64,000 bases of DNA from Dongshaea marina (GTDB taxonomy: Bacteria > Pseudomonadota > Gammaproteobacteria > Enterobacterales > Aeromonadaceae): contig NZ_CP028897.1 of assembly GCF_003072645.1 (NCBI RefSeq), positions 3,051,658-3,115,657 on the forward strand. The letters run 5' to 3'. The position numbers and the translations under genes are program-made. Every line of letters starts with the position of its first letter. The stretch's first letter is position 1. Below, in pieces: positions 1-22,227 of the stretch. The notes below the pieces were generated by a model. That model had not been told where the DNA came from. It searched no databases and worked only from the letters and a program-made list of their open reading frames with translations.

Positions 1-2358
1 CTCATTTTTCTTCCAGCCAGAGAGTTCATTCAAGAATAACGGATGTATCTCTGAATAGGTTTTAGGCTTATCCTTTAGCTCTTGTCGCATCCATTCAATA
101 GCAGAAGATTCATCATCAACGAAAATTGATATTTGTTGTACACGACTAACCACAGCTCGTTTACGATCATAATCGGCAACTTGCTCTGCCGTAAAGTACA
201 TTCCATCTCTCTCGTAAAACTTTTGAGCAAGCCCAGTCTGAAAATCCAAACTTGAAATAGGAACTTCATGGCCGCGTTGAATATAAAATGTGACCACTTG
301 GTCAAATAGTATTCTAGGATCTCTTTCGGGTACAAAAACAATTTCATTATCTTTTACTCTTGCCGCGGGTAAGAAGCGCAGATGGTTACCAATAAACTCC
401 CAGACAGATACATTTTCAACATGTTTCGATGCTTTATCATGAGCAAACCCTTCCAAAGGTTTATAAGCCGTAATAACCAAGTCTTGTTTAACAGCGGTGG
501 GACTAGTCATTGCTTTATGACTACCTTTCTTCTTGTCCAAAGCTGATACACTAGAAACCACAAAACCTGCCTCGGTTAAAGCAGATTGTATACTATTCCA
601 AACAGCAGCTTTTGTATTAGAAAACTCTACTGTCAACCAGCGGCCAGGTTTCAACACTCTATAGGCATTCGCGAAGGCTGCTTTCATTAAAACACGATAA
701 TCATCAAGCTGTTTTTTTTGGGTTTCATTGACTATTGCTTCATCAATGGTGTTGGTTTTTACTTTAAGCCAACCTTCCCATAGTGCATTGACTTCCGAAT
801 AATTAATATTTGCTCCAAACGGTGGATCATAAAACATATAATCAATAGAGTTGTCAGGTATTGCTAATCTAGCTGCTGAGCCTGTAGTGACGACCGATGG
901 TTTTGAAACTAACAAACTCTTTCTTAGCCTAGCTCTTAGCTTAATTCTGCTAATAACATTTACCTCCAAAGAGATTGAAGGCATATATAGCGTGCGCTCT
1001 AACGGCTTATCTACTGTCCCTCCTTTTTTGGAAAAGTGATTACCTACATGCAGCCTACATAATCGATTTAAATATTGATGAGCAGAAGTAAATACAAACT
1101 TTAACTTGTTCTTTTGAGGAGAATTATTAGAAAATTCAAGCCAACGCGAAAGCGCGTAAAGGTTTCTTTTTGTATAAAAGTGATGTATGTGAGACATCCC
1201 ATGAGAGTTTTTGGGTTGCCTAGTGTTAACACCATCCTGTAGTTCATCAGTTGGAACGGGATACAAAGGCTCTAGCTTGAAAGACTTATCAATAACCTCT
1301 AAATCATTAGTATCCGGTATCTTAGTAAATCTTTTATTACCCACAGAATAATTGATTAAAACAGGTTTTTGTTTGGCGGTCTTTATGACGGCACCTTGCA
1401 GCTCATCAAATACTTGCTCATAAACTCTAACCATGTTTTTCTTATTAAGAACTGAATGACACTTAGGACAATTAAAGTCATTTTTGACTTTACCCTTAGT
1501 ATGGTCTAGAGCATTATCCCAGAAAAACACTTCTTCTGAACACTCAGGACACTCAAAGACATCAGACCATATGGTATAGTTTATTACTCCATCTGAGCCA
1601 TCATCGTGCTTAGTTTTATACATCCACGATAGTTCATGTTCTAGCTCTCCTAATATATTTTCTACCTCTAATTCATACGAATCAGCTTCAAGTGGAGAGT
1701 TATAGTTCGACGCGATAAACGTAGCTGCTGGCGATAAATCATTTACAATTACATTTCTTTGTCCAAGCTTTGAAATTTTGCTAGTTGGATTTTTATACTC
1801 ATCGACTTTGTATATATCACCGCTCTCATCGACAAAGTAACCTAGAGACTCTACAGCTGACCTGTCTCCACATAAATTAGCAGCAACTCCCGTCATACCA
1901 GTACCGCAAAACCCGTCTAACACGCTATCACCAGGTTCAGTATAATGAAGTATGTATCTCATTACAGCCTTGTGAGGAACCTTGGTGTGATACGAGTGAG
2001 CATTATAAATAGGGTCATTCTTCCCTTCACTTACATCCGCTGTATAAGGCTCTCGATGATATAGATATACTGCATCACTAGTCACTTTCTGTGATTCCCA
2101 GTGTTTCACAAAGTCACTCAGCCAAGGGTTGGGACAAGCTGTGTAGTATGGCGGATCAGAAAGCTCTAAAATGGCTTCATCCGTACCAATAGGAAAGCCT
2201 TCAAGTGCTCTAAATTCTGGATCTTTTAGTTTTTTACGCAGTAGGTCTGTATAATGAGCTCTGCGAGCTTCGTCACTCTCAAAAGTCATCCCTAGACACT
2301 CTACTGGCCCAGATGGCTTTTTATCGCTTTCAATATCAAACAGGTTTTCTTGATTCAT
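1..2358 (-). CDS. pglX: PglX-type BREX DNA adenine methyltransferase (partial, runs off left edge)
   Basis: The reading frame opens with ATG at 2358 and stays open to base 1, giving about 786 residues with no stop, so the 3' end is outside the window. It carries DPPYYTACPNPW (about 68-79), a SAM-binding DGFCGTGMTG (about 148-157), a four-cysteine zinc ribbon (CPEC near 271, CPKC near 299) and a second DPPFGANINYSE near 514 followed by a VLKPGRWL strand. These are motifs of amino-methyltransferases of the PglX/DUF1156-like kind. In BREX the PglX enzyme methylates host DNA at an asymmetric adenine site and is needed for exclusion of unmodified phage. The order brxF-brxC-pglX matches BREX type 3, which predicts brxHII, pglZ and brxA beyond the left edge. 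Assignment to the type 3 variant (PglXI) is inferred from context. Confidence 0.85.
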   Translation of the reverse strand, partial: MNQENLFDIESDKKPSGPVECLGMTFESDEARRAHYTDLLRKKLKDPEFRALEGFPIGTDEAILELSDPPYYTACPNPWLSDFVKHWESQKVTSDAVYLYHREPYTADVSEGKNDPIYNAHSYHTKVPHKAVMRYILHYTEPGDSVLDGFCGTGMTGVAANLCGDRSAVESLGYFVDESGDIYKVDEYKNPTSKISKLGQRNVIVNDLSPAATFIASNYNSPLEADSYELEVENILGELEHELSWMYKTKHDDGSDGVINYTIWSDVFECPECSEEVFFWDNALDHTKGKVKNDFNCPKCHSVLNKKNMVRVYEQVFDELQGAVIKTAKQKPVLINYSVGNKRFTKIPDTNDLEVIDKSFKLEPLYPVPTDELQDGVNTRQPKNSHGMSHIHHFYTKRNLYALSRWLEFSNNSPQKNKLKFVFTSAHQYLNRLCRLHVGNHFSKKGGTVDKPLERTLYMPSISLEVNVISRIKLRARLRKSLLVSKPSVVTTGSAARLAIPDNSIDYMFYDPPFGANINYSEVNALWEGWLKVKTNTIDEAIVNETQKKQLDDYRVLMKAAFANAYRVLKPGRWLTVEFSNTKAAVWNSIQSALTEAGFVVSSVSALDKKKGSHKAMTSPTAVKQDLVITAYKPLEGFAHDKASKHVENVSVWEFIGNHLRFLPAARVKDNEIVFVPERDPRILFDQVVTFYIQRGHEVPISSLDFQTGLAQKFYERDGMYFTAEQVADYDRKRAVVSRVQQISIFVDDESSAIEWMRQELKDKPKTYSEIHPLFLNELSGWKKNE

Positions 2359-2420: not shown

Positions 2421-5400
2421 TTAATCAACAATAATTCGCACTTTGCTGCTATCTTTGCCTTTGCAATGAGTATTGAGCAGTTCTTCAAAGCGAGCTTTAA
2501 CATCATCCAATGTTTGCGGCGTTCCTTTACCTAAACTTGCAACTAGATCCATTGTTGAGATTTTCACTTCTTCTAAGCCAGAAAGGGCCTCGTTTACACC
2601 TGCAATAAACTCTTTACTCACCGGAGTGGTAAAACTTCCGGAACTAATGAAAACATTGATTTCACCGCGTTGGACTTCTGACAATAGATCCAGTTGCAAG
2701 AACGGATCGGCTAGCGTCGATTTTAAGCTTTGGGTCCACTCAGACAACATCTCGGTTAACTGGTTATCTAACTGAGCTAAACGCACACTTGCTGAAGCTT
2801 TACTTCCCTCACTGCGCGGTGAGAAGTTAACTGGGTTTGGCGTCAACTCAATTGTTTTAGGGTCAATCGACTCAGCAACTTGCAAAGAGGCCCAATCTGA
2901 CCTCCACTGCTTAACCTGCTCTGCAGGAAGTAATGAGATACCAGACAATGCTTCTAACGTTTGCAGACGTTCATCGCCGATCAGTGCCGCTTTCTCTTTA
3001 TCCTGCTCCATTGTTAAACGAGCCGATTGGTACAAAGCAACATAGCGCTGAGTATACGCTTTTTTAAGCTGTTGCAGATTTGCTAGCTGCGCTTGCTTAA
3101 AGCTTGACTCTAAGCGTGTAGTTTTATCTTCAATACCATTTCTAAGTGCTAGCGCTGCATCTCGCACATCAGATTGCCACTCATCATTCTCATCAAGAAT
3201 GAGCTGAGCTTCTTTAAGATATTGAGCGTATTCAGCGAAGCTACCCACCACTTCCGAAAGTTGTTTAAAGCTCTTCCACTCTTTCAAAGTTTCTGCGTGC
3301 TCTACAATTGACTCCGCCGATTCTTTGAAGTTCTTGAGTTTACCTGGCGTATTGAAACGCTGCAGAGACTCTAAGAAATTTTTTGATTTGTCCAAACGCT
3401 CAGTTAACAAAGTCGCTTCATTTTCAGAAAGAACATGATTCCCCCACAGCATCAGTCGTTGCTTAACCAACTGTTGATCGTGCACTAGTGATTTAACTAA
3501 CTTTTCAATCTCTTGCCCCATCGTACGGACAACATTTTCATCACCTTGCTGAATAGACGTAGCTAAACCTTCATTCATCCCAAGTAATTCAAGTACTGCT
3601 TTAATAGCAGTGACATTAAAGTCCTTTGGCGCTTGAATATGTTTGAAGTCAATCAATGTGGCAAAATCAATACCTTTCAGAGCATCCATATCACTTGCAG
3701 TGATCACTTTACCAACAACTGATAGTTCTAACTCCCCAGCGTGCACTAGCGTGGCCAAAATCACAAGCAGCCACTCTGGTTCTAATCGATAAGTACCTGG
3801 CTTGAAGTATAGGCGCGCATGTACAGCTTCCAGCAACTCACTCTGGTTAACGACTTGCCCATGGCCTTTTGCTGCTAACACTTCAAGTACTGCTTGTGCA
3901 TAACGAGAGTTACTTGGTTTTAGCTTGTCGCCATCAAGAAGTTCAAGCGCATCGAGTACTGCAGTAGCACGTTTAGTTGCAGCGCCTCCAGCCAGCTTAC
4001 TCAACACATCTCTACTTGCTCCTACGATAGTATCTTCTGTGATTCTCTGTGAGAACTTTGGATACTCTGGTGCTAAAGATTGAAAGTAATCTTCTAGAAT
4101 AAAACTAGCTATCGCCTCAAAGATGTCTTTCACGCTACCATGATCACTGTCTGCAATACCCGTGATGTCACGTACAGTCGCTCCCCTCAGCCAATCCATT
4201 ATTGGCTTAGACTTTCCGTTGTATTGAACTTCAAATGCATCTTTAATATTGGCTCGAATCCATCTAATCATCTCACCAAGGTAGCCATCAGCTTTGAGCT
4301 TGTAAGTTTGCTGTGCACTACCAGTAGCAAGAGCACGCAAAGCAACAGATGCCGCATAATTCTTTAAAGACTGATTAAACTCTTCAGAGCGGTTCTTAAG
4401 GATAAACTGTACTTCATCTTCACGAATGAACTCTTTCTTTTGCTTTGGTGGTTTCTCTGGCTGAATGAAATACATGTAGTAATCTAGCTGAGGCTTCGCT
4501 GTTTCACGCTCATTTGGGGAACCCAGGAATAACCAACCAGGACGACTAACGTTTCTATCTAACCACTTCAACTCATGTTGCCACATCGCCGTTTTCGACT
4601 GCTGTGAGTCTGTTTGCTCCAAAATTTCCAGCATCGCAGCTCTATACGCTGAATTAATACTATCAGGTGAAAGACCTGTTGCTTTGGCTTCAATATGAGC
4701 GTCAAAATCTTCTGTCTTTTTAAGATCCAGGTAAAACTGATCATTCGTTTTATTCTTTGAAAAAAACTGCCCATTTACAGTGCGGCGAACCTTGGTCAAT
4801 ACCGTCACTATATGGTTTTCTAAGTTCTTACTCTTGTCACCGGGCATGACCTCTATGTTTTTTAAATACAAACATAAGGAGTCGCGTAACTCTGCCGCTG
4901 TAGCCCCCATTTCAGCATAGATATCACCAACCGCCATTCGGTGAATGGCAAGACCCGCAACCAATCGCTTAGCAAAATCTTTTTCACCCGGTGTTGGATA
5001 TGCCTGATCAATACGGTCAACAAGAAGCTCACCAGTTTCAATAACTTGACTAACCTCAGGGTTCGTCTTCATGCTTGGCTCACTACTGAGTTCGTTCCAA
5101 TATGTATCGTAAGAAAAGATCCCAGGGACTTCTTGAGGAACATCTTCTTTCATCAGCTCATTCATCTGACGGGAAAGGCTCTTTAGTACCTGACGGTTTT
5201 CAAGCCCTGCCACTCTTACTCGTTCGAATGTATTTATGTAATCAGGATGAACAGGGAACATACGAACGAACTCATCTAAGCGCTCATTCATTTTGTCGTA
5301 ATAAGGCGTAAATTTTTGCAGATACTCACGAATCCAAGCCTGCTGCTGGGCATTTTTCTTCAACAGACGTTCAGCAACTACATATTTGATATCCTCACGA

Positions 5401-6146
5401 GCAATCAATACTTGCTCTGCACGGTCACGAATTCGTTTTACTTCTTTAGATAGGAACTCTAGTTGTGTGCTATCAAAGATAGCTTCCTGCACTCCAGCCA
5501 TAAAGCGGAAACGTGTGCCATCAATTACTTCGCCGATAACTCGAAGAATCGCAATATCTAGTGGTAGTTCTTGCTCATTACGAGAGCGGAAGTAATCAAG
5601 CATCTCATCGCAAACCAGCAGCAAGCCATGATCAGGGTATTTTTCATGGAATGAGCTCATCATCTCTTCGAAATAGGGTTTATGGTTTGATGAAATCTCT
5701 GTCATCGGAGGGAACTCGTAGTCCACTCCCATAGCTGCTAGCCCATCGGTTAAGTTCTGTGTAACAATGTCAGTCAGTGCCATTTTTGATGCACCAATTT
5801 CAAATCGAATAACTTTAAACTTACCCGCAATCTTACCCGCTGCGTTGAGAACGGTCTCATTTGAAATATGACTAGCTAAGTCGGGAAACTCCGCGACGGC
5901 TGAAATCACAGACATTAAGTGAGATTTACCCGAACCATAGTTACCAACAATCCAAAGCGCCTTGTTGTCAACTGACTCTTCGTATTGCAGCTGTTCAATA
6001 ATCACATTACTCAACTTCTGAGACATTTTATCTGAGATCACGTACGACGACACTAAGCCTATAGCCTTGTCATGGTCACTTGAGCTCTTCAGCTGAATGT
6101 TAGCTGTTACAGATTCAAATTGAATCAAATCGCCGTACTTTTTCAT
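2421..6146 (-). CDS. brxC: BrxC/PglY-like BREX ATPase (DUF6079-like)
   Basis: This is a 1241-residue cytoplasmic P-loop ATPase. Walker A is GNYGSGKSH at residues 68-76 and a Walker B-like LLLVCDE lies at about 175-181. The length and the N-terminal ATPase followed by a long helical body fit the roughly 1200-residue BrxC/PglY family of BREX systems, where the protein is an essential core component. It overlaps the upstream brxF by 4 bases (ATGA), which indicates translational coupling. The body contains long charged helical stretches around residues 850-1100. Base composition is more AT-rich than the regulator gene to its right, consistent with a transferred defence island. The DUF6079 label is from recall of the family. 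Confidence 0.85.
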   Translation of the reverse strand: MKKYGDLIQFESVTANIQLKSSSDHDKAIGLVSSYVISDKMSQKLSNVIIEQLQYEESVDNKALWIVGNYGSGKSHLMSVISAVAEFPDLASHISNETVLNAAGKIAGKFKVIRFEIGASKMALTDIVTQNLTDGLAAMGVDYEFPPMTEISSNHKPYFEEMMSSFHEKYPDHGLLLVCDEMLDYFRSRNEQELPLDIAILRVIGEVIDGTRFRFMAGVQEAIFDSTQLEFLSKEVKRIRDRAEQVLIAREDIKYVVAERLLKKNAQQQAWIREYLQKFTPYYDKMNERLDEFVRMFPVHPDYINTFERVRVAGLENRQVLKSLSRQMNELMKEDVPQEVPGIFSYDTYWNELSSEPSMKTNPEVSQVIETGELLVDRIDQAYPTPGEKDFAKRLVAGLAIHRMAVGDIYAEMGATAAELRDSLCLYLKNIEVMPGDKSKNLENHIVTVLTKVRRTVNGQFFSKNKTNDQFYLDLKKTEDFDAHIEAKATGLSPDSINSAYRAAMLEILEQTDSQQSKTAMWQHELKWLDRNVSRPGWLFLGSPNERETAKPQLDYYMYFIQPEKPPKQKKEFIREDEVQFILKNRSEEFNQSLKNYAASVALRALATGSAQQTYKLKADGYLGEMIRWIRANIKDAFEVQYNGKSKPIMDWLRGATVRDITGIADSDHGSVKDIFEAIASFILEDYFQSLAPEYPKFSQRITEDTIVGASRDVLSKLAGGAATKRATAVLDALELLDGDKLKPSNSRYAQAVLEVLAAKGHGQVVNQSELLEAVHARLYFKPGTYRLEPEWLLVILATLVHAGELELSVVGKVITASDMDALKGIDFATLIDFKHIQAPKDFNVTAIKAVLELLGMNEGLATSIQQGDENVVRTMGQEIEKLVKSLVHDQQLVKQRLMLWGNHVLSENEATLLTERLDKSKNFLESLQRFNTPGKLKNFKESAESIVEHAETLKEWKSFKQLSEVVGSFAEYAQYLKEAQLILDENDEWQSDVRDAALALRNGIEDKTTRLESSFKQAQLANLQQLKKAYTQRYVALYQSARLTMEQDKEKAALIGDERLQTLEALSGISLLPAEQVKQWRSDWASLQVAESIDPKTIELTPNPVNFSPRSEGSKASASVRLAQLDNQLTEMLSEWTQSLKSTLADPFLQLDLLSEVQRGEINVFISSGSFTTPVSKEFIAGVNEALSGLEEVKISTMDLVASLGKGTPQTLDDVKARFEELLNTHCKGKDSSKVRIIVD

Positions 6147-6652
6147 TTCATAACTCCATTGCAGGCATCAATCACCTGTATATCATTTAAATCTTTTAAT
6201 AAATAGGATTTGTAATCTGGCTTACCTGGTTTGGAGTAAACCATTGACGTCTGTGTTATGTCACCTGGCCATATTGCTACTAGAAGCTGAGATTTAGATA
6301 CCATTTTTAAAAGTATCATTGGATCATTTTCTAGAGATGGTTCAAATAGCACATCAAGCTTAGTCATCCATACAGAACAACCACAATCGTTAGCTATTTC
6401 AATAACTTCATCCTCAAGCCGTTTAACTCTATCTTTGATGGACTGACTCACCAGTTTTCGTGAAAGCTCTTTTGACAAGTTAACTAAGCTAATCGAGCTG
6501 TTTAAGAGCTCTAGTTCAGCTGCGCGTTGTAGTGCCGGTGGGATAGCGACCAATACCAACTTGTAGGATTGATATTCTGCTTCACGACAAGCATTTTGAA
6601 CACGCTGGATCAATTGATCTTTTAAGCGAAACAATGTTATTGAAGTCTCCAC
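6143..6652 (-). CDS. brxF: BrxF-like BREX-3 protein without a recognisable P-loop
   Basis: This is a 169-residue protein at the head of the BREX genes. The middle (LVNLSKELSRKL), the strand SVWMTKLDVLFEP, DPMILLKMVSKSQLLVAIWPG and a C-terminal SKPGKPDYKSY follow the pattern I know for BrxF, a small ATPase diagnostic of BREX type 3. In the expected nucleotide-binding position, after the strand YKLVLV, the sequence reads AIPPALQRAAEL instead of a GxxxxGKT loop, so Walker A appears to be lost. The start lies 2 bases after the stop of the WYL regulator and the end overlaps brxC by 4 bases, so all are co-transcribed. Identity rests on length, position and motif pattern. A homology search would settle it. 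Confidence 0.65.
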   Translation of the reverse strand: METSITLFRLKDQLIQRVQNACREAEYQSYKLVLVAIPPALQRAAELELLNSSISLVNLSKELSRKLVSQSIKDRVKRLEDEVIEIANDCGCSVWMTKLDVLFEPSLENDPMILLKMVSKSQLLVAIWPGDITQTSMVYSKPGKPDYKSYLLKDLNDIQVIDACNGVMK

Positions 6653-6654
6653 AG

Positions 6655-7593
6655 CTAACTATCCTTCCGAGGTTTTTTTTCTGTCTGATAACCCGGTGCA
6701 ATGGCTATATTGCTCACCCCATACAGGGCCTGGGGGTTAGCAAGGGCCAGTTGGTGCTCACTGCCAGATAGTTGATGCCCCTCTGAGCAATCGACACTCC
6801 ACTGACGCAGCAGGTACCCGGCCAGGGCCGCTCGTACCTCCAGAATTCGTTTGCCATTTTGCATTCCATAATCGAGCTCAATGGCCTGTGGGTTATTGAT
6901 CCCCGGGTGAGGTATCAACTCCAGATCGACGATTCGATTCCACTGTTTATCGGCATCTCGTAGCTCATGAGGCTGCGAGGTTACTTCTGCGACTTGCGCC
7001 GCCAGAAAGCGGGTGCAGACAAAATCACGAAATGCATTACGACTGCGATCAAAGGCGCGCACATGCCAGCGATGTCCATTGTTTACCAACGAGTGAGGTA
7101 CCAGGGTGCGCTCAGTCTCCCCCGAGGAGAGGGACACATAACGACACTGCACCGCTCGTTTGCTATGGATCGCCCGCATCAGGGTGCCGATGATCGCAGA
7201 GCGTGGTTGAATCAGCCGCACCGCATCAAAACAGATGACGCTGTGCTGATTACCGCTGGCCAGACCATCACCAAAACCGTGCATCAGTGTATTAAGCACC
7301 ATCTCGGGATCGTGCTCAAACAGGGGTTTGAAGTCTTCAGCTCGATGATAGCTCTTGGTCTGATGCACTAGATGCATATTCTCGGGAGCCAGCTCTTTAT
7401 AAGCTGTCAGATCCCGGGTCGCAGCAGCTAAACCAGTCTGAAAGTGACTGGTTAGCTCCGCTCTTGAGATCTCACCGATAAACTCTAAAGAGAAATCGAT
7501 AAAGGCCAGCCGCTCACGCTGAGCATGGGTCAACTTAGCAAGCTGCTTTTGACTATCCATGATTACATCATCAGGATGTTTGCTGTTGGTCAT
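6655..7593 (-). CDS. WYL-domain transcriptional regulator of the BREX operon (BrxR-like)
   Basis: The protein has an N-terminal winged helix (LTHAQRERLAFIDFSLEFIG..SRAELTSHFQTGLAAATRDL), a WYL domain (residues about 150-220: IHSKRAVQCRYVSLSSGE, RWHVRAFD) and a C-terminal extension. This architecture matches BrxR/CapW-type repressors, which sit upstream of defence operons and dimerise on DNA. I use ATG at 7593. An in-frame TTG at 7626 and an ATG at 7560 are alternatives, and no strong ribosome site decides. It is immediately upstream of brxF on the same strand (2-base gap), so it is probably autoregulatory for the whole operon. It looks less AT-rich than the brx genes. The ligand is unknown. 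Confidence 0.8.
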   Translation of the reverse strand: MTNSKHPDDVIMDSQKQLAKLTHAQRERLAFIDFSLEFIGEISRAELTSHFQTGLAAATRDLTAYKELAPENMHLVHQTKSYHRAEDFKPLFEHDPEMVLNTLMHGFGDGLASGNQHSVICFDAVRLIQPRSAIIGTLMRAIHSKRAVQCRYVSLSSGETERTLVPHSLVNNGHRWHVRAFDRSRNAFRDFVCTRFLAAQVAEVTSQPHELRDADKQWNRIVDLELIPHPGINNPQAIELDYGMQNGKRILEVRAALAGYLLRQWSVDCSEGHQLSGSEHQLALANPQALYGVSNIAIAPGYQTEKKPRKDS

Positions 7594-7747
7594 CACATAA
7601 CAGGGAGGCAAGATAAGATCGTTCAAGGATAGTTGAGGCTACACCTTGGTGCAATCATTTTGATTGCCTATCTCACTCTTTATTGATCTCATCCGGTTAC
7701 CCCATTCTAATGGCCTGATCTCAGGAGTAACCAACTCATCCGCAAGA

Positions 7748-8269
7748 CTATCCCGGCACCTGCTCCGTCCACTGTTGAGTCTGACCGCAGTAGCAACAAT
7801 GTTGCTGACAGCGGATGAGATTAACTCTCGGGTTGTGCCGATAGCGATGATCCGGTTCACCATCTTTACGATTATGGAGCCAACTGCTACCGACTCTCTC
7901 TTTCTGAACCTTGCCAAGACCCAGCCTGCCACAACTACAGCGCCGTTTCGTGCAGTAAATCCGCCCGTAACCAATCACAGCCAGCAGCAGTAACAATATG
8001 CCGGGAAGGGCTGCTCCCAGCAGCAAAGCTATGATTCCAAACACCAGAGCATAATGACGCAGTGGCCAGGAGGGAGTCTGTCGATTTGGGCCTGAACTTC
8101 CATAGGTTCGATAACTAAAGCCGAACAGAGACAGACTCCCGTAACGCCGGCCCCGGGAGCTAATACCAACTCGAGCACCTTTGACACCAAGACTCAGCCC
8201 CAGTCCCGAGCGACTCAGATTGAGGCGAAAAGGCCCGATACGTTTGCTTTTTCGGTATGACCAACCCAT
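7748..8269 (-). CDS. DUF4236 protein with C-terminal zinc-ribbon-like motif
   Basis: This is a 173-residue protein. The N-terminal 55 residues (MGWSYRKSKRIGPFRLNLSR..GLSLGVKGARVGIS) match the short basic, glycine-rich DUF4236 domain. One or two hydrophobic segments follow (about 70-100), then a cysteine-rich tail with TKRRCSCG and CQQHCCYCGQ that could bind zinc. The function of DUF4236 is unknown. It is on the same strand as, and upstream of, the BREX regulator with a 122-base gap, but its composition is that of the host chromosome and it is probably not part of BREX. Confidence 0.7.
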   Translation of the reverse strand: MGWSYRKSKRIGPFRLNLSRSGLGLSLGVKGARVGISSRGRRYGSLSLFGFSYRTYGSSGPNRQTPSWPLRHYALVFGIIALLLGAALPGILLLLLAVIGYGRIYCTKRRCSCGRLGLGKVQKERVGSSWLHNRKDGEPDHRYRHNPRVNLIRCQQHCCYCGQTQQWTEQVPG

Positions 8270-8333
8270 AGTGAGATCCGCTGCTTCATTTGAAAATAGT
8301 GCTGCTGCATTCTAGCTTGTGTGACTGAAGAGC

Positions 8334-8357
8334 AAATCGGGCAGTTGCCCGATTTTT
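8334..8357. terminator. Hairpin terminator candidate
   Basis: ATCGGGCA-GT-TGCCCGAT is a perfect 8-bp stem followed by five Ts on the plus strand and a shorter T-rich tail on the minus strand. It lies just past the stop of the lipoprotein gene (minus strand, ends 8363) and probably ends that transcript. Confidence 0.6.
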
Positions 8358-8362
8358 CATTG

Positions 8363-8773
8363 TCAGATGATGATGCAGTGATCAAACATCGGGCTGCCGA
8401 TCACCATTCCCTTTCCAAGGCACTTGAGAGTCTGGGTGCTGTGCTTGCGAATCCCCGCTGCCGCAGAGCGTTGGCTGACATCCAGGGTGCAATGGACTGA
8501 CTCAAACATATTTTGAGTCTGGAAGCTAATATTGGCATTTCCGGTAAAATCTTTGCTGATCTCACCAACCCGACCGGTGATCTCAACAACTCTGCCTTTG
8601 TATTGCTGATCTGCGGCCACCTCATTGTTATGGTAGTCACTCCAGATTTGTGCCGCAGAGCGAGCTGTATCTGGCTGCATATGAGCAATATCCTGCTGGT
8701 CGTTACAGGCACTCAAAGATAAAGCTGCAAGCGTGGCCAGCAATAGGGTGATAGATAAACGAACTTTTTTCAT
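8363..8773 (-). CDS. Lipoprotein with OB-fold tRNA_anti-like domain
   Basis: This is a 136-residue exported protein. A signal peptide with lipobox (LAALSLSAC, Cys about 23) predicts a lipid-anchored periplasmic protein. The mature part (YKGRVVEITGRVGEISKDF..ISFQTQNMFESVHCTL) resembles the tRNA_anti-like/OB-fold family found in small envelope proteins, where the name is structural and does not imply tRNA binding. Two cysteines in the mature part could form a disulfide. It is followed by a hairpin terminator and is 37 bases downstream of a membrane-protein gene on the same strand. Confidence 0.7.
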   Translation of the reverse strand: MKKVRLSITLLLATLAALSLSACNDQQDIAHMQPDTARSAAQIWSDYHNNEVAADQQYKGRVVEITGRVGEISKDFTGNANISFQTQNMFESVHCTLDVSQRSAAAGIRKHSTQTLKCLGKGMVIGSPMFDHCIII

Positions 8774-10340: not shown

Positions 10341-10616
10341 ATGGCAAATATTCGGCCTCGCATTACGGCGCGAGTAGACGTTCAGACTCAGGAACTGCTT
10401 ATCAGAGCATCAGCTCTTGCCGGGATGAGTAATGTAAACTCTTTTGTACTCAATGCAGCGGTTGAGAAAGCAAAGAAAATTGTTGAGCAAGAGCAGATGT
10501 TGCAGCTTTCAGAGCAAGATGCGCTGCTGCTCGCTAAAGCTCTGGATACGCCAGCCCGCCCTAACTCCAGGTTACAACAGGCAGCACAACGATATCAGGA
10601 GAGCAAAGACTCGTGA
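10341..10616 (+). CDS. tacA: TacA-type antitoxin (DUF1778, ribbon-helix-helix)
   Basis: This is a 91-residue protein. The N-terminal half (RITARVDVQTQELLIRASALAGM..NSFVLNAAVEKA) is the DUF1778 ribbon-helix-helix DNA-binding domain. The acidic C-terminal half (about 50-91) should wrap the toxin. It overlaps the GNAT toxin gene by 4 bases. Antitoxins of this family neutralise acetyltransferase toxins and, with them, repress their own promoter. The paired operators upstream support that. A strong GGAGG Shine-Dalgarno sits 5 bases before the ATG. Confidence 0.85.
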   Translation: MANIRPRITARVDVQTQELLIRASALAGMSNVNSFVLNAAVEKAKKIVEQEQMLQLSEQDALLLAKALDTPARPNSRLQQAAQRYQESKDS

Positions 10617-11107
10617 TATCTGTACCTTTGGACAAATCAAAACATGATCGGCGGCGCTTTGACTGTGGCGTCCCTGCATTAAATAGCTACCTGCGGGTGA
10701 TGGCCAGCCAGCAAGCGGTGAAAGACAATAGCAGAACCTTTGTAATTGAAGATCCTCAAAGAGAGGAGTGGATCATTGGTTACTATTCATTAACCATGAT
10801 CCCTGTCGACCTGGGCGTTCTTCCGGAAAAATTACAAAAAAAGCATCAGAGTGCCCGCTCAGGAGGGCTCATCGCCCGGCTGGCCGTCGATCGTCGCTAC
10901 ACCGGTAATGGTTATGGTGAGTGGCTACTCATCGACAGTCTGCATAAGTTGCTTCAGGCAAGCGAATCAGTTGGCTTTCCTGTGGTCGTTGTCGATGCGA
11001 AAGAGGGCGCTGCAGATTTTTACAGAAAGTTTGGCTTCCAATCCTTTGCGGATACCCCCAACAAACTGTTTATGACCATTGCCGATATCCGAGCCAGCCT
11101 AGGCTGA
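10613..11107 (+). CDS. tacT: TacT-type GNAT toxin (tRNA acetyltransferase)
   Basis: This is a 164-residue GNAT acetyltransferase. The acetyl-CoA pyrophosphate loop is RLAVDRRYTGNGYGEWLL (about 88-105), and the C-terminal DFYRKFGFQSF carries the tyrosine used as general acid in TacT. An N-terminal CGVPALNSYL motif is also typical. TacT toxins acetylate the amino group of aminoacyl-tRNAs and stop translation. It is translationally coupled to the DUF1778 antitoxin by ATGA overlap. All key motifs are present, so it should be functional. It ends 3 bases from the convergent recombinase gene. Confidence 0.85.
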   Translation: MISVPLDKSKHDRRRFDCGVPALNSYLRVMASQQAVKDNSRTFVIEDPQREEWIIGYYSLTMIPVDLGVLPEKLQKKHQSARSGGLIARLAVDRRYTGNGYGEWLLIDSLHKLLQASESVGFPVVVVDAKEGAADFYRKFGFQSFADTPNKLFMTIADIRASLG

Positions 11108-11110
11108 TAT

Positions 11111-11730
11111 CTAAATATCTATGCTCTCCGAGAGATCGAGGGCGTCATCCAAATCGATCCCCAGATAGCGAACCGTGCTGTCGAGCTTCTGATGCCCCAG
11201 CAGCAATTGCACCGCCCTGAGATTTTTGGTTTCCCGATAGATCAGAGTCGCCTTGGTGCGTCGCAGTGAATGCCCGCCATAATCGCAGGGATCGAGACCA
11301 ACCTTTGCTACCCAGTATTGGAGACGCCGCGAATATTGCTTAGGAGTCAGGTGACCTGAGCTGGAGTACTTACTGGGAAAAATATAGGGGCTCAGCTGTG
11401 GATCTATACTACTCAACCAGAGGGCTATGGCGACCCGAGTTGGCTTGGTCAACTCAAAGCGAACTGCTCGGTGAGTTTTGCTCTGCACTACGGTCGCCCG
11501 ATTGAGGATCTTGCCCGCATGGACGATATCACTGACTTTCAGTGCAACCAGATCGCAGCCCCTGAGCTTGCTGTCGAGCCCGAGGTTAAACAGTGCCAGA
11601 TCCCGTGTTTCTCCCTCAGTTTCGAGAAAATGGCGAATAGCCCAGATATCTTTGCGGGAAAAGGGCCGTTTTTGCCCGATGATTTTTCCTTTATTCCAGG
11701 GATATTTTTGCTGCAGTCATCGTTATCCAT
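11111..11730 (-). pseudogene. Tyrosine recombinase, frameshifted near its N-terminus
   Basis: The C-terminal frame (stop at 11111) encodes a phage-integrase catalytic domain with an Arg in SKLRGCDLVALKV, HSLRR, GHQKLDST and the tyrosine in VRYLGIDL, so the active site is complete. The frame is open up to about 11722 with no start, while the only good ATG (11730, MDNDDCSK) is in another frame. Adding one A to the A5 run (T run at 11705-11709 on the plus strand) joins them as MDNDDCSKKYPWNKGKIIG, which agrees with this roughly 200-residue recombinase family. It is therefore broken by one missing base, or is a slippage or sequencing artefact. It lies next to a toxin-antitoxin pair and hipA, consistent with a mobile region. 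Confidence 0.75.
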
Positions 11731-12111
11731 AATCTGCACTCCCATACTTCAAAATTAAAATATGGCTGCAGAGATGCTCAGATCGCAAATCTTGCTGTCC
11801 TGCTCAGGAATTAACCACAATGTCCTTGGGTTATTTTACTGTCCGCTTTGGGAGACCTTCGGACATTCCAAGAAATCAACTTTGGATTATTTGAGTTTGT
11901 ATTCCAAGATTCGCTACGGCAACATTGCGGTGTCAGGTGCGGATGATGATTGACACCAGCACCCATCACGGGTCAGATCGCCGATTTGTGACAAAAGCCT
12001 ACTATAGAAAAAGCACTAGCTAAATATGCAGGGATCTAGCTGTGGAGCTGGTTGCAGGTTTGGCTCGGCCATGTCCCAGGTTTCTGGTTACACCACCATA
12101 ACCGAATACGC
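11731..12111. other. Intergenic stretch, no gene seen
   Basis: Between the recombinase and the hip operators I find no credible coding sequence. The only structure noted is the TGTCCG hairpin at 11840-11866. Confidence 0.5.
11840..11866. repeat. Short hairpin repeat, copy 1 (TGTCCGCTTTGGGAGA type)
   Basis: TGTCCG and CGGACA flank a CTTTGGGAGA-containing loop. The 16-base core TGTCCGCTTTGGGAGA recurs exactly at 18745-18760, again followed by a matching right arm. These are two copies of a dispersed small palindromic element in the accessory region. Confidence 0.55.
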
Positions 12112-12224: not shown

Positions 12225-13555
12225 ATGGCTCTTACAATCCAGACATACATCGCAGGCGAGTGGCTCGATACTGCATCTCTACAGATAGATGACCCAGGAG
12301 CGGGAAGGGCCGGTGAGATCAAAATGGCATACCTAAAATCGTATGCGCTTAAGTTTTATGGTGAGTATGGCTATGAGGCTGTTAGCTTAAACCGCCCCGT
12401 TGAGTTAATGGTCACCTACTCGAAGTCCCATTGGTTCGCCTTTCTTGATGACATAATGCCATCAGGAGCAGCGCGTAAATATTGGATTTCTCACCTTGGT
12501 TTATCTGGCCTCACTTCAGATCAACAGGATTTTGCACTACTAGAGAAAGGAACCATCGCGCCTGTTGGTAACCTCCGGATCAAAGAATCACTACCCATGC
12601 TCCCAGAGGGCAGTACGCTCACAACAAGGCGATTCCCAGAACTAGATGTGATTGAGCGAGACTCCCACTTCCTAGAATATGCTCAGTCTATGGGGGCTAT
12701 AAGTGGTGGTGCCACAGGAGCAGGGGGGAAGCCCCAAAACTTTTGCTGCGAAGAAATGATGCTGGTAAGGTCTGGATCGATACATTCCAAGATGAGCCAA
12801 CAAATACTGATACCCACTATCTCGTGAAATTTCCGCGAGGGAATCGCACAGCTATTGACCAGGATATACTTCGAGCCGAGTACCACTACTATCACGCGCT
12901 AGCAGATCTTGGAGTGAGTACCATTGACACAGAAAAGATGATGCTCAAAGAGGGGGATAGATACCCGTCTCTATGGCTACCTCGGTTTGATGTGGATTTT
13001 GAGGACGGAGAGGTTGTTAGATACGGGTTAGAGTCCGTTTACTCTATTCTTGAAAAAGAGCCGGGAGCTCCCATAAATCATTTTGATGCCATCCGGAATC
13101 TATGCGGGATCTTTGGTCAGTTGGAGGGTACACCATTTAGCTCTCAGGAATTTGTGAATGAGTGGGTATACCGGGATTTCCTAAGCGTGGTTTTCGGTAA
13201 CTCTGATAACCATGGACGCAACACTGCGTTTATCAAAAAACCAGGGGTCATCGAATTATCACCTATTTACGACTTTGCGCCTATGAGAGCAGACCCAGAA
13301 GGAGTGATCAGGATCACAACCTGGGGGTCACCATTTGAAGAAGGTGGGAATTTTGATTGGATCGGGATCGCAAATGGGTTGCAGGATGTAGCCGACCCCG
13401 AATTGATTATCTCCAAGTTGAAAGAGATGGCCAACATGCTCTCTGGATTAAAAGAAAACTTGAGGGCCCGTGGTGTCCCAGAAAGCATACTAAATATGCC
13501 AATAATGCGATTTGACACCCTGGATAAAAGGCTTGCTGAGTGGGGGTTAATATGA
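12225..13555 (+). pseudogene. hipA: HipA-family kinase toxin, frameshifted at a G6 tract
   Basis: The N-terminal frame from ATG 12225 encodes the HipA N1 domain and runs to the G6 tract at 12723-12728. The remainder continues in the next frame to TGA at 13555. One extra G (G7) joins them as GAGGEAPKLLLRRND, the expected HipA nucleotide-loop region. The second part has the kinase catalytic GNSDNH and metal-binding SPIYDFAPM. HipA kinases phosphorylate aminoacyl-tRNA synthetases or other targets and cause growth arrest. As given, the product stops early and is inactive. The gene precedes hipB (ATGA overlap), opposite to the E. coli order. The break may be real, slippage-prone or an assembly error. 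Confidence 0.85.
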
Positions 13556-13860
13556 AAGAGCTATCACCATCAGAAAGAGAGCACCTGCTTAAGCGCGTTG
13601 CAAGAAGTATCTTCACTGGAGAAATAACTAATGGCCAAGCGTTACAAAAATTACGCAAAGAAATTCTTCAGATGTCTCAAGAGGAATACTGCAAATTTGC
13701 TGGCGTTAGCCGAAAGACACTTTCCGATATTGAACTCGACAAAGGGAAGCCCACAGTTAGTATCTTGAACCGTGTTTTTAAACCATTAGGATTTGAGTGT
13801 AGTCTAAGACCGCGTAGTGGTTCATTAGCTGAAGATATGTTTAATACTCGGTATGATTGA
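13552..13860 (+). CDS. hipB: HipB-type helix-turn-helix antitoxin
   Basis: From ATG 13552 this encodes 102 residues. An XRE-type HTH is visible (KEILQMSQEEYCKFAGVSRKTLSDIELDK), followed by TVSILNRVFKPLGFEC, as in HipB-like antitoxins, and a short tail that may occlude HipA. A GTG at 13540 is in frame, but the ATG overlapping the hipA stop (ATGA) is the better start. It should bind the three palindromes upstream of hipA and repress the operon. An intact antitoxin with a broken toxin gene is a common and tolerated state. Confidence 0.8.
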   Translation: MKELSPSEREHLLKRVARSIFTGEITNGQALQKLRKEILQMSQEEYCKFAGVSRKTLSDIELDKGKPTVSILNRVFKPLGFECSLRPRSGSLAEDMFNTRYD

Positions 13861-19141: not shown

Positions 19142-22100
19142 ATGATGGCTCAGTTAGTCGATGAGATGATCTTTCAATCAGGGGGCAAACTGAAGAATCG
19201 CATCCTGATGGCACCGATGACGATTCAGTCTGCTTTTTTTGATGGCGGTGTGACCCAGGAGATGATCGCCTATTACGCATCCCGCGCAGGTGATGCGGGT
19301 GCCGTCATCGTAGAGAGTGCTTTTGTTGAAAACTACGGCCGCGCATTCCCCGGTGCACTGGGCATAGATACCGACAGCAAGATTGCTGGTTTGAAAAAAC
19401 TGGCTGAGTCGATCAAGGCGAAAGGCTCAAAGGCAATTTTACAAATCTATCACGCAGGTCGCATGGCCGATCCTGAGTACAACGGTGGCCACCAGCCGAT
19501 CTCTGCAAGCCCTGTTGCAGCCCTTCGTGATAACGCTCAAACTCCCCTTGAGATGACAGAAGATCAGATTGAAGCAATGATTGAGAGCTTTCGTCATGCA
19601 TTCAGACGAGCAATTTTAGCGGGCTTTGATGGCGTCGAGATCCACGGGGCAAACACCTACCTTATCCAGCAATTCTTCTCGCCTCACTCAAATCGCAGGA
19701 CGGACCAATGGGGGGGCGATATTGAAAAACGCACCCGCTTCCCGCTGGCAGTTTTGCAAAAGGCCAAACAGCTTGCCCTCTCCTTTGCAAAAGAAGATTT
19801 CATCATCGGCTATCGCTTCTCGCCGGAAGAGATAGAGGAGCCGGGGATCCGCTTTACCGATAGCATCTACCTGTTGGATAAGCTTGCGGCTGAGGGCCTG
19901 GATTATTTGCATTTCTCTATGGGCCACTGGCAGCGTAACTCCATTGTAAACCCCGAAGATAAAGAGCCGCTCATCACCAGGTATCGCCAGCTTCAAACCG
20001 AAAACCTGGCCAGAGTGCCGGTGATTGGGGTGGGCGGGATCGCCCAGCGTCGCGACGCAGAAAAAGCCCTCACCCAGGGCTACGACCTGGTGAGTGTGGG
20101 TAAAGGCTATCTGGTTGAACCCACCTGGGCAACCAAGGCACTAAGTGATGAGTCCTGCGCTGAATTTGCCGACATTGCCCAACAGAAGGAATTGCAGATC
20201 CCCACCCCGCTTTGGGAGATCATGGACTACATGATTGTGGATAGCGCCGCCGAAGCTCTGAAACATCAGCGAATCAAAGAGCTCCAAAAGATTAAGATCA
20301 GCTTCAATTCGGGTGCATACACGGCTTACGGCCGCGGCCATAATGGCGACCTGCCTGTGACCGTGACCTTCTCAGAAAATAAGATCCTGGATATCCTGGT
20401 GGATTCATCCAATGAATCAGACGGCATCGCTAATCCGGCATTCGAGCGTATCCCACAGCAGATCCTAGATGGTCAAACCCTGAATATTGATGTGATCTCG
20501 GGTGCGACCGTGAGTAGCCAGGCGGTGATTGATGGTGTTTCCAATGCAGTTGATCTGGCTGGCGGTAACTCTGAAGCGCTGCGCTGCAAAGCTCGAGAAG
20601 CCGTTGAGTGGTCATCCAAAACCATTGAAGAGACCGTTGATATCGTGGTTGTCGGCGGCGGTGGTGCTGGCCTGAGCGCAGCCCTGACTGCCCTGGATAA
20701 AGGCAGGTCGGTTATTTTGCTCGAAAAATTCCCCGCAATTGGGGGGAACACGGTTCGTACCGGTGGCTGGGTCAACGCCGCAGAACCACAATGGCAAAAT
20801 GACTTCCCGGCACTAGCGGGCGAAAAAGAGAGCCTGCTGGCAATTTCCCAAACACCAGAGTCCGAGTTCGTTGGTGAGTACCTCAATGATTTCAGAGTGC
20901 TCAAGGATCAAATTGCCACCTATTTTGCCGATGTAGAGATAGGTAAACACTATCTGTTCGACTCCGTCGAGCTACACAGGATCCAGACTTACCTTGGCGG
21001 CAAACGGACCGATCTCAACGGTGAATTAATCTATGGTCAATACGATCTGGTGGAGACCCTGACATCGCGCTCTATGGAGTCGATCAACTGGTTGAGTGAT
21101 AAAGGCATCGATTTTGACCGCAGTGTGGTTGAAATTCCGGTCGGTGCTTTGTGGCGTCGCGCCCACAAACCAAAGCGCCCCAAGGGTGTTGAGTTTGTCG
21201 ATAAGCTCCAGCAGCGCATTCAGCAACAAGGTGGCCGGATCATGACAGATACCCGGGCGACCGATCTGATTGTTGAAGATGGAAAAGTGGTGGGTATCAG
21301 GGCGACCCAGGCCGACGGCACCAAGCTGGTGCTCCATGCCAACCAGGGAGTGGTGCTTGCCTCGGGTGGCTTTGGTGCCAACACCCAGATGATCAAAAAA
21401 TATAACAACTACTGGAAAGAGATCGCGGACGATATCAAAACCACCAACTCCCCTGCTCTCATCGGTGATGGTATCGAGATTGGAGAAAAAGCGGGAGCCG
21501 AGCTGGTTGGTATGGGCTTTGTGCAGCTGATGCCGATAGGGGATCCGAAATCCGGTGCCCTGCTGACGGGGCTTATCGTACCGCCCGAAAACTTTGTCTT
21601 TGTGAACCAACAAGGCAAACGCTTTGTTGATGAGTGTGAAAGCCGGGATCGGCTCTCTGAGGCATTCTTTGATAACGGTAGCCTCATCTATATGATCGCC
21701 GATGAGAAGATTCGCCAAACGGCGGCCAATACCTCTGACGCAACCATAGAGCGCGAAATAAAAGAGGGGATCATCATTCAGGCAGACACCCTCGAAGAGC
21801 TGGCTGAGAAGATTGGGGTACCTGAAGCTGAATTGACCGAGACCATTAAGCAATACAATAGCTATGTTGAACTGGGCCATGATCCCGAGTTTCATAAGAG
21901 CGCATTCGGTTTGAAGGTGGAGCAGGCCCCCTTCTACGCCACACCGCGTCAACCATCGGTTCACCACACCATGGGAGGGCTGAAGATTGATACCAGAGCG
22001 CGGGTGATCAACAAAGAGGGTGAGATTATTCCTGGCCTGTATGCGGCAGGTGAAATCGCAGGAGGCATCCACGCGGGTAACCGTTTGGGCGGGAATGCGC

Positions 22101-22159
22101 TGATTGATATCTTCACTTACGGGCGCATCGCAGGTGAAAGTGCAGCCGAGCTTGCTTAA
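19142..22159 (+). CDS. NADH-dependent fumarate/enoate reductase with OYE, FMN_bind and FAD domains
   Basis: This is a 1005-residue cytoplasmic flavoprotein without signal peptide. Residues about 1-350 are an Old Yellow Enzyme-like TIM barrel (MAPMTIQSAF, VEIHGANTYLIQQFFSP). Residues about 375-475 are an FMN_bind domain with the flavinylation motif DVISGATVSS, whose Thr456 would carry FMN through a phosphoester. From about 500 there is an FAD_binding_2 domain (VVVGGGGAGLSAAL) as in fumarate reductases/flavocytochrome c, with HHTMGGLKID and GNRLGGNALID. This is the architecture of soluble NADH:fumarate (or acrylate/cinnamate) reductases, which pass electrons from NADH through OYE-FMN and covalent FMN to the FAD site. 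The next gene encodes ApbE. The acceptor cannot be told from sequence. Confidence 0.85.
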   Translation: MMAQLVDEMIFQSGGKLKNRILMAPMTIQSAFFDGGVTQEMIAYYASRAGDAGAVIVESAFVENYGRAFPGALGIDTDSKIAGLKKLAESIKAKGSKAILQIYHAGRMADPEYNGGHQPISASPVAALRDNAQTPLEMTEDQIEAMIESFRHAFRRAILAGFDGVEIHGANTYLIQQFFSPHSNRRTDQWGGDIEKRTRFPLAVLQKAKQLALSFAKEDFIIGYRFSPEEIEEPGIRFTDSIYLLDKLAAEGLDYLHFSMGHWQRNSIVNPEDKEPLITRYRQLQTENLARVPVIGVGGIAQRRDAEKALTQGYDLVSVGKGYLVEPTWATKALSDESCAEFADIAQQKELQIPTPLWEIMDYMIVDSAAEALKHQRIKELQKIKISFNSGAYTAYGRGHNGDLPVTVTFSENKILDILVDSSNESDGIANPAFERIPQQILDGQTLNIDVISGATVSSQAVIDGVSNAVDLAGGNSEALRCKAREAVEWSSKTIEETVDIVVVGGGGAGLSAALTALDKGRSVILLEKFPAIGGNTVRTGGWVNAAEPQWQNDFPALAGEKESLLAISQTPESEFVGEYLNDFRVLKDQIATYFADVEIGKHYLFDSVELHRIQTYLGGKRTDLNGELIYGQYDLVETLTSRSMESINWLSDKGIDFDRSVVEIPVGALWRRAHKPKRPKGVEFVDKLQQRIQQQGGRIMTDTRATDLIVEDGKVVGIRATQADGTKLVLHANQGVVLASGGFGANTQMIKKYNNYWKEIADDIKTTNSPALIGDGIEIGEKAGAELVGMGFVQLMPIGDPKSGALLTGLIVPPENFVFVNQQGKRFVDECESRDRLSEAFFDNGSLIYMIADEKIRQTAANTSDATIEREIKEGIIIQADTLEELAEKIGVPEAELTETIKQYNSYVELGHDPEFHKSAFGLKVEQAPFYATPRQPSVHHTMGGLKIDTRARVINKEGEIIPGLYAAGEIAGGIHAGNRLGGNALIDIFTYGRIAGESAAELA

Positions 22160-22170
22160 CTCAATAAACC

Positions 22171-22192
22171 GGGGAAGCATGGCTTCCCTTTT
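22171..22192 (+). terminator. Hairpin between the reductase gene and apbE
   Basis: GGGAAGC-ATG-GCTTCCC followed by TTTTCTTT lies between the reductase stop (22159) and the apbE start (22228). It probably attenuates read-through, so the modifier is made at a lower level than its large substrate. Confidence 0.65.
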
Positions 22193-22227
22193 CTTTAGCA
22201 TTCCATCAACGGAGCAGATTGATAAAG

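What the first reader, a model, noticed from the sequence alone, without database searches (positions are those of the whole stretch)
6143..6652. BrxF-like protein lacking the Walker A motif
Where the nucleotide loop should follow the strand YKLVLV, the sequence is AIPPALQRAAEL with no glycines and no Lys-Thr/Ser. The rest of the BrxF pattern is kept. It may be a structural, ATP-independent BrxF variant or an inactivated system.
Basis: partly seen in the sequence, partly recalled or inferred. Interest (0 to 1): 0.55.

Follow-up and report, generated by a model that had tools for sequence, protein, structure and literature searches.

The report
BREX-3 BrxF without nucleotide-binding loop
A small adaptor protein of a bacterial anti-phage system lacks the loop that most of its relatives use to hold ATP, and the lack is shared by a small lineage, so the gene was probably retuned to work without its own ATP rather than simply broken.

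Summary
Window 6143-6652 (-) is a BrxF: NCBIfam NF033453, 90.9 bits, cut-off 50. It overlaps brxC in a type 3 BREX locus. It has no Walker A motif, in place or in any frame of that strand.

Of 51 BrxF loci, 46 carry G-x4-G-K-[ST] and 5 do not. Four of the five (window, a Pseudoalteromonas, Aeromonas caviae, a Klebsiella plasmid) form one clade in BrxC and BrxF trees. The fifth, from Enterococcus faecium, probably lost it separately (p-AU 0.08 against one origin). Within the clade BrxF stays open with dN/dS about 0.2, so the lack looks old and kept under constraint.

The window's system may still be broken: an IS21 element splits brxHII.

The AlphaFold2 model keeps the AAA+/STAND core. Its best solved match is BrxB (9zll, Z 10.2), the P-loop-less type 1 bridge between BrxC and PglZ; a P-loop BrxF has the same top match. 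Best reading: a BrxB-like, nucleotide-free cap and bridge on the ATP-bearing face of BrxC. This is a new variant of a known kind; binding is untested.

The parts
6143..6652 (-). brxF, P-loop-less variant, 169 aa
   Evidence: NF033453 90.9 bits, cut-off 50; PADLOC PDLC02497 93.3 bits; ORF
6512..6547 (-). residues 36-47 AIPPALQRAAEL, in place of the Walker A loop; in the model two residues (37-38) lie between strand 32-36 and helix 39-51
   Evidence: the P-loop model has six residues between strand 19-23 and helix 30-41
6359..6364 (-). residues Thr97-Lys98 at the Walker B Asp-Asn position
2421..6146 (-). brxC, 1241 aa
   Evidence: PF19557 1336.7 bits, PDLC02482 BrxC 1426 bits
5922..5945 (-). intact Walker A of BrxC, GNYGSGKS, residues 68-75
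6143..6146 (-). ATGA overlap of the brxF stop and the brxC start (translational coupling is inferred)
1..2358 (-). pglXI methyltransferase, cut by the window edge; continues in frame in L012 to 19218 (932 aa by frame arithmetic)
   Evidence: PDLC02541 1074.7 bits for this part and 313.1 bits for the tail
6655..7626 (-). WYL-domain regulator upstream of brxF (BrxR-like by position and domain)
   Evidence: PF13280 58.4 bits; a WYL gene also precedes brxF in L009 (55 bits) and, as annotated, in L048 and L050

Best explanation
The gene encodes a BrxF of a type 3 BREX system that has very probably lost the ability to hold its own nucleotide but keeps the AAA+/STAND scaffold. The simplest history is one loss in the ancestor of a small gammaproteobacterial lineage, first at Walker A and later, in the window/Pseudoalteromonas branch, at the Walker B Asp. 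Most likely mechanism, inferred from the type 1 counterpart: BrxF docks on the ATP-bearing face of the BrxC AAA+ domain as BrxB does, ends the BrxC stack there and bridges BrxC to PglZ. BrxC, which keeps its Walker A, supplies the ATP. BrxF then needs no P-loop of its own and works as a nucleotide-free cap and adaptor. Shown here: family, motif loss, clade, constraint on the gene, predicted fold and its resemblance to BrxB. Inferred: docking on BrxC, bridging to PglZ, loss of ATP binding.
For: Family by HMM and context: WYL, BrxF, BrxC, PglXI, then BrxHII, PglZ and BrxA just outside the window. Walker A absent in 5 of 51 loci, four of them one clade: BrxC tree 100/100, BrxF tree built without the P-loop columns 100/99. 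dN/dS 0.263/1.311 (about 0.20) for window-L009 and 0.206/1.111 (about 0.19) for L038-L039, inside the 0.07-0.39 of P-loop pairs (the near-identical pair L060-L061 and the saturated pair L019-L058 not counted). BrxC next door keeps GNYGSGKS. AF2 model of the window protein: pLDDT 81.0, pTM 0.76; top VIA match BrxB chain 9zll_E, Z 10.2, rmsd 3.6, 146 aligned, next best 8.6. 9zll_E is a DUF1788/BrxB chain by sequence. In type 1, BrxB binds the BrxC AAA+ face, gives an Arg to the ATP held by BrxC, would preclude a further BrxC there, bridges to PglZ residues 1-98, and raises the ATPase activity of the BrxC N-terminal domain (PMC13326643, sections 28-31 read).
Against: I found no binding or activity data for any BrxF. 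The BrxB resemblance is not special to the P-loop-less form: the P-loop BrxF model has the same VIA top match (Z 10.6, next 9.6), and Foldseek ranks p97 and other AAA+ ATPases first for it, with no BrxB among the 50 rows shown. For the window model Foldseek's best, 9zll, has E 3.3e-3; nothing passes 0.001. BrxF-BrxB profile similarity is weak (hhalign probability 14.5%, E 0.0019). The BrxB Arg taken to touch ATP aligns with R 26, Q 15, K 1, E 1, gap 3 in the 46 P-loop BrxF and K here, so it is not conserved. The models rest on 5-row alignments. Three of the four clade loci have a broken BREX gene elsewhere: window brxHII; L038 brxC and pglXI; L039 pglXI. L009 is seen only up to brxHII. In E. 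fergusonii type 1, wild-type BrxC(1-551) bound BrxB-PglZ weakly and ATP with Mg abolished it, so the ATP dependence is not uniform even there.
Confidence: 0.6

Rival explanations
1. Decay: the P-loop loss is one step in the erosion of a dying BREX-3 locus and the protein does nothing.
For: The window's brxHII is split by an IS21 element. L038 has a shortened BrxC (1175 aa, profile to 1144 of 1231), a DDE transposase ORF behind it and a cut PglXI (profile to 559 of 919); L039 has PglXI cut to 150 aa next to an arsenic operon. In the two close P-loop-less pairs the BrxF dN is 12-13 times the BrxC dN, against 1.2 to 7.3 in 11 P-loop pairs.
Against: All four clade members lack the motif but have open BrxF frames (listed or stop-to-stop at 162 to 219 aa), with dN/dS near 0.2 in both close pairs. 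The motif loss is shared by the clade while the breaks differ from locus to locus, so the loss is likely older. In L009 BrxF, BrxC, PglXI and BrxHII are all full length.
Confidence: 0.2
2. Ligand switch: the pocket was reshaped to hold another ligand or nucleic acid, so BrxF is a sensor rather than a passive cap (the sensor role proposed for iSTAND modules in PMC12839542).
For: Fast amino-acid change relative to BrxC in the two close pairs (only 4.4-fold between the two halves of the clade, window-L039); joint change of H-x-E to K/R-x-D and of the Walker B neighbourhood in the clade; PMC12839542 section 21 proposes sensing for iSTANDs.
Against: No conserved new loop is visible: the replaced stretch differs among the four (AIPPALQ, VIPEDFR, VDAPEP, INSPTQ).
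Confidence: 0.15
3. Degenerate site still binds nucleotide weakly, perhaps through BrxC contacts, so BrxF is functionally like its P-loop relatives.
For: The strand-helix core around the site is predicted to persist.
Against: In the window protein Gly, Lys, Ser/Thr and the Walker B Asp are all gone and the predicted loop is 2 residues instead of 6.
Confidence: 0.05

Closest known systems
BrxF of type 3 BREX (NF033453 / PADLOC PDLC02497, PDLC02496)
   Same: Profile match above the curated cut-off, gene position before brxC and pglXI, predicted fold, conserved Arg (R64 in L046 numbering: R in 46 of 46 and in the clade) and the Trp after strand 4
   Different: No Walker A, no Walker B Asp, H-x-E changed to K-x-D
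BrxB of type 1 BREX (PF08747/DUF1788; PDB 9zll chain E)
   Same: Small AAA+/STAND scaffold without a working P-loop; best solved structural match, Z 10.2; W-P-G/Y-P-G and the C-terminal region align
   Different: No PF08747 match in the protein or in the window's genome (G000 0 matches); profile similarity weak; the system is type 3 with BrxHII
P-loop-less BrxF of Enterococcus faecium plasmids (L051)
   Same: NF033453 99.4 bits, no Walker A
   Different: Keeps Walker B D-N and H-x-E; its BrxC groups with P-loop systems, 98/99, though one origin with the clade is not strictly rejected, p-AU 0.08
iSTAND modules (PglW C-terminal, type 4 PglZ N-terminal, MoxR-vWA systems) as described in PMC12839542
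   Same: Inactive STAND scaffold reused as adaptor or sensor
   Different: From the paper's text only; not compared here by sequence or structure

Membership tests
BrxF (NF033453) | Profile score above curated cut-off of 50 bits | tested here: met
   90.9 bits
BrxF (NF033453) | Walker A P-loop, as in the family name | tested here: not met
   Absent. Also absent in 4 other loci that score 99-104 bits on the same model, so the name is not a strict criterion of the model. I file it as a P-loop-less BrxF homologue, not as a 'P-loop-containing BrxF'
BrxF (NF033453) | Lies directly before brxC of type 3 BREX | tested here: met
   4-base overlap with brxC; PDLC02482 BrxC
BREX type 3 | brxF, brxC, pglXI, brxHII, pglZ, brxA in one locus | tested here: met
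   All six found (PglZ also BREX_PglZ_3 549.4 bits). brxHII is split by an IS; its best model is named BrxHI|BrxHII. brxA is doubled, by PADLOC only: NCBIfam gave no match for either
BREX type 3 | Working phage restriction | not testable with these tools
   brxHII interruption argues against it in this strain
BrxB (PF08747) | PF08747 profile match | tested here: not met
   Not among Pfam matches at E <= 1; none in G000 at E <= 0.001
BrxB (works like) | AAA+/STAND scaffold without Walker motifs | tested here: met
   Model and VIA Z 10.2 to 9zll_E; motif loss
BrxB (works like) | Binds BrxC AAA+ face and PglZ N-terminus | not testable with these tools
   Described for type 1 BrxB (PMC13326643)
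BrxB (works like) | Invariant C-terminal Arg given to the ATP of BrxC | tested here: inconclusive
   Aligned position is K here, R or Q in most BrxF; the alignment is weak; the paper's number R182 falls on the YYR Arg in chain 9nv3 but not in 9zll, so the residue itself is my inference

The most novel reading that the evidence does not exclude
BrxF is ancestrally an ATP-holding member of the BrxC stack that can be sandwiched between AAA+ partners. In this clade it converged on the BrxB state: a one-sided, nucleotide-free terminator of the BrxC oligomer, so control of the complex moved wholly to ATP in BrxC. BREX-3 thus offers both states of one adaptor in nature.
Probability: 0.3. Interest if true: 0.55.

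Novelty: new variant of a known kind. Interest (0 to 1): 0.42.

Why it matters
Type 1 BrxB works without a P-loop, while 46 of 51 sampled type 3 BrxF loci carry one; I found no paper that tests what that P-loop does. A natural clade without it makes the question directly testable: does BREX-3 need ATP in BrxF? It also qualifies two labels: NCBIfam's 'P-loop-containing' (5 of 51 sampled loci lack the loop) and the 'iSTAND' (inactive STAND) used for BrxF as a class in PMC12839542.

Tried and rejected
P-loop elsewhere in the protein or in another frame of that strand: none. Sequencing error: unlikely, because a 69%-identical homologue lacks it too. More members of the clade: the clade profile found only G000 in 394 genomes of the order at E <= 1e-5; viral contigs gave none with the clade alignment or the E. 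faecium protein; phage records none at E <= 0.01; a Klebsiella brxF-brxC query found nothing in E. coli genomes, by megablast only, which needs about 85% identity. One origin for all five P-loop-less BrxF: two changes needed in the BrxC trees, 2% of bootstrap trees with one; AU test p 0.08; in the BrxF tree 28% of bootstrap trees have one. So one origin is disfavoured, not excluded. PDB search by sequence with a 5-row BrxF profile: no match at E <= 1. Arg-finger equivalence with BrxB: inconclusive. Host name: not resolved; the nearest DNA match to window 24000-48000 among plasmid records is Vibrio, 82% over 3 kb.

Rows dropped: copies of one locus (L001, L003, L047 = window; L013 = L002; L072 = L070; L073 = L046). 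NF033453 hits under the cut-off (about 20-25 bits) did not pass my own 7-row BrxF profile at E 1e-6 and were not looked at further; nor did L010 and L011 (33% over 71 residues). BrxF shorter than 140 aa left out of the BrxF tree (L021, L068, L069). BrxC pieces under 340 aa or missing left out of the BrxC trees (36 rows, 41). The second E. faecium plasmid record was not fetched; its matched 146 residues are identical. Of 13 P-loop pairs, two were left out of the quoted dN range: L062-L064 (BrxC broken in L064, ratio 0.5) and the near-identical L060-L061 (3.7). Pairs share members and are not independent.

Full report
WHAT IS THERE. The ORF at 6143-6652 (-) encodes 169 aa from a GTG start; its stop codon overlaps the brxC start by 4 bases. 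It scores 90.9 bits on NCBIfam NF033453 BREX_3_BrxF (cut-off 50) and 93.3 and 69.8 bits on two PADLOC BrxF models. The neighbours are a WYL regulator upstream (6655-7626) and, downstream, BrxC (2421-6146; DUF6079 1336.7 bits; PADLOC BrxC 1426 bits) and PglXI (1-2358, running off the window). The rest of the locus was taken from the window's own genome (G000, contig 1). In order: the PglXI tail, BrxHII in two pieces, PglZ (BREX_PglZ_3, 549.4 bits) and two BrxA paralogues found by PADLOC but not by NCBIfam. Between the BrxHII pieces lie IS21 genes: the transposase in two overlapping frames (NF033546, 160.2 and 135.6 bits) and IstB (NF038214, 255.3 bits). The two BrxHII pieces match profile positions 3-592 and 587-929, so the insertion splits the gene with little or no loss. 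All six type 3 BREX components are therefore present; brxHII is interrupted.

THE MOTIF. YKLVLV occupies residues 30-35, followed by AIPPALQRAAEL. Glycines are only at 91, 130, 143 and 166, and no frame of that strand over 6101-6750 holds GK[ST]. I collected BrxF with NF033453 from whole genomes. Over the cut-off were 2 of 198 relatives, 8 of 369 in the class, 7 of 398 in the phylum, 20 of 301 in the order of G333, 7 of 40 in the order of G395, 6 of 48 in the order of G570 (none new) and 1 of 1 (not new). The sets overlap, and each count includes G000 or its own centre. Plasmid records, viral contigs and genome contigs (one of its three loci) were added. After removing copies, 51 loci (50 distinct sequences) remained: 46 have G-x4-G-K-[ST], 5 do not. 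In the 46, sorted by that motif, the Walker B residue is Asp in 45 (one gap), followed by Asn in 40. In the window and L009 the Walker B Asp is Thr; in L038, L039 and L051 it is still Asp. The simplest order is Walker A first, the Walker B Asp later in one branch. A cap motif H-x-E (H in 43, E in 43 of the 46) is K/R-x-D in all four clade members but unchanged in E. faecium.

ONE CLADE. The window protein is 69% identical to a BrxF of an uncultured Pseudoalteromonas (L009) and 28-30% identical to those of a Klebsiella plasmid (L039) and Aeromonas caviae (L038). These four form one clade in trees of BrxC N-terminal domains (36 rows, 100/100; 41 rows, 100/100) and in a BrxF tree with the P-loop columns removed (42 rows, 100/99). 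The E. faecium BrxC groups with P-loop systems (98/99), which favours a second loss, though its branch is long and holding all five together is not rejected (p-AU 0.08). The clade is rare in the sample: its profile found nothing but G000 in 394 genomes of the order.

NOT SIMPLE DECAY. dN/dS of BrxF is about 0.20 for window-L009 and 0.19 for L038-L039 (Nei-Gojobori; dS above 1, so rough), inside the 0.07-0.39 of the P-loop pairs with usable values. BrxF changes faster relative to BrxC in these two pairs (dN ratio 12 and 13) than in 11 P-loop pairs (1.2 to 7.3); between the two halves of the clade (window-L039) the ratio is only 4.4. L038-L039 also differ in dS between the two genes (1.11 against 0.41), so recombination is possible there. 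Against my reading, three of the four clade loci are damaged elsewhere: window brxHII by an IS; L038 brxC and pglXI, with a DDE transposase between them; L039 pglXI cut to 150 aa beside an arsenic operon. L009 is full length for BrxF, BrxC, PglXI and BrxHII, but the held DNA ends there.

FOLD. In the window model, strand 32-36 passes in two residues into helix 39-51; in the P-loop model six residues lie between strand 19-23 and helix 30-41. VIA-align gives BrxB of the Acinetobacter type 1 BREX (9zll_E) as the best solved match for both: Z 10.2, rmsd 3.6, 146 aligned, next 8.6 for the window; Z 10.6, next 9.6, for the P-loop form. So the likeness to BrxB belongs to BrxF in general and does not by itself set the P-loop-less form apart. 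Foldseek ranks 9zll first for the window model, at E 3.3e-3 with nothing below 0.001, and p97 and other AAA+ ATPases first for the P-loop model, with 47 matches below 0.001 and no BrxB among the 50 rows shown. 9zll_E is a DUF1788/BrxB chain by sequence. Profile comparison of 20 BrxF with 6 BrxB gives E 0.0019 but probability only 14.5%, aligning W-P-G with Y-P-G and the BrxF C-terminal Y-x-x-Y with YYR of BrxB.

MECHANISM. In type 1 BREX, BrxB, an inactive AAA+ protein, binds the ATP-bearing face of BrxC, contributes an arginine to that ATP, would preclude a further BrxC there, bridges to the first 98 residues of PglZ, and raises the ATPase activity of the BrxC N-terminal domain. Charge reversal at R82 of BrxB breaks binding to BrxC, abolishes lambda restriction and leaves 84.6% methylation. 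In E. fergusonii the ATP dependence differed (PMC13326643: abstract, passages and sections 28-31 read). PglZ is a metal-dependent nuclease that forms a complex with BrxB (PMC12205998, abstract and section list). BrxF has been proposed as the BrxB counterpart of type 3 (PMC10164562, one passage; PMC12839542, passages and sections 21 and 25). The window BrxF keeps the scaffold, sits beside a BrxC with an intact Walker A, and would need no nucleotide of its own to act as such a cap and bridge. That step is inferred.

WHAT IS KNOWN. A full-text search for BrxF listed 18 papers, most of them on other subjects. The four BREX-related ones that I opened (PMC12839542, PMC10164562, PMC10799925, PMC9716671) do not report a P-loop-less BrxF clade in the text seen; one other listed paper, on a database of mobile-element proteins, was not opened. 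Searches are the basis; supplements could not be read. PMC12839542 calls BrxF an iSTAND as a class; in my sample 46 of 51 keep Walker A and 45 of these the Walker B Asp, so the loss of Walker motifs holds only for the minority described here. Whether the P-loop forms hydrolyse ATP is not known to me; the usual Glu after the Walker B Asp (recalled, AAA+ consensus) is mostly Asn.

VERDICT. Observation confirmed; interpretation partly supported; a new variant of a known kind, of moderate interest because it makes the role of ATP in BrxF testable.

Noticed in passing
L012:15040-17372 (G000 contig 1, just outside the window's left edge): IS21 transposase in two overlapping frames and IstB (NF033546, NF038214) inside brxHII; BrxHII pieces match profile positions 3-592 and 587-929.
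   Followed up: partly
L012:10420-11127 and 11139-11864 (-): Two tandem BrxA paralogues (161.5 and 113.7 bits on PDLC02437) at the end of the BREX-3 locus.
   Followed up: partly
L012:5563-6561 and 7386-8408 (+): Near the BREX island, a TniB-like ATPase (PF05621 79.9 bits) behind an ORF without Pfam or NCBIfam match that looks like a TnsB-type integrase (recalled).
   Followed up: partly
window 12225-13860 (+): HipA-like protein in two overlapping frames: the second ORF matches HipA_C (PF07804 72.7 bits), the first has no Pfam match; a HTH protein follows. Perhaps a frameshifted hipA.
   Followed up: partly
window 10613-11107 (+): GNAT acetyltransferase (PF00583 33.3 bits) resembling TacT/AtaT-type toxins (recalled); a partner antitoxin was not looked for.
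   Followed up: partly
window 19142-23172 (+): 1005-aa fusion of Oxidored_FMN, FMN_bind and FAD_binding_2 domains followed by an ApbE family protein.
   Followed up: partly
L051:11860-12318 (E. faecium plasmid pP47-180): Record annotated 'P-loop-containing protein BrxF' has no P-loop; Walker B D-N is kept.
   Followed up: yes
L048:13781-15649 and L049:16210-18084: Two alphaproteobacterial plasmid BREX-3 loci carry an annotated 'RNA-binding domain-containing protein' gene between brxC and the methyltransferase; the window has none there.
   Followed up: no
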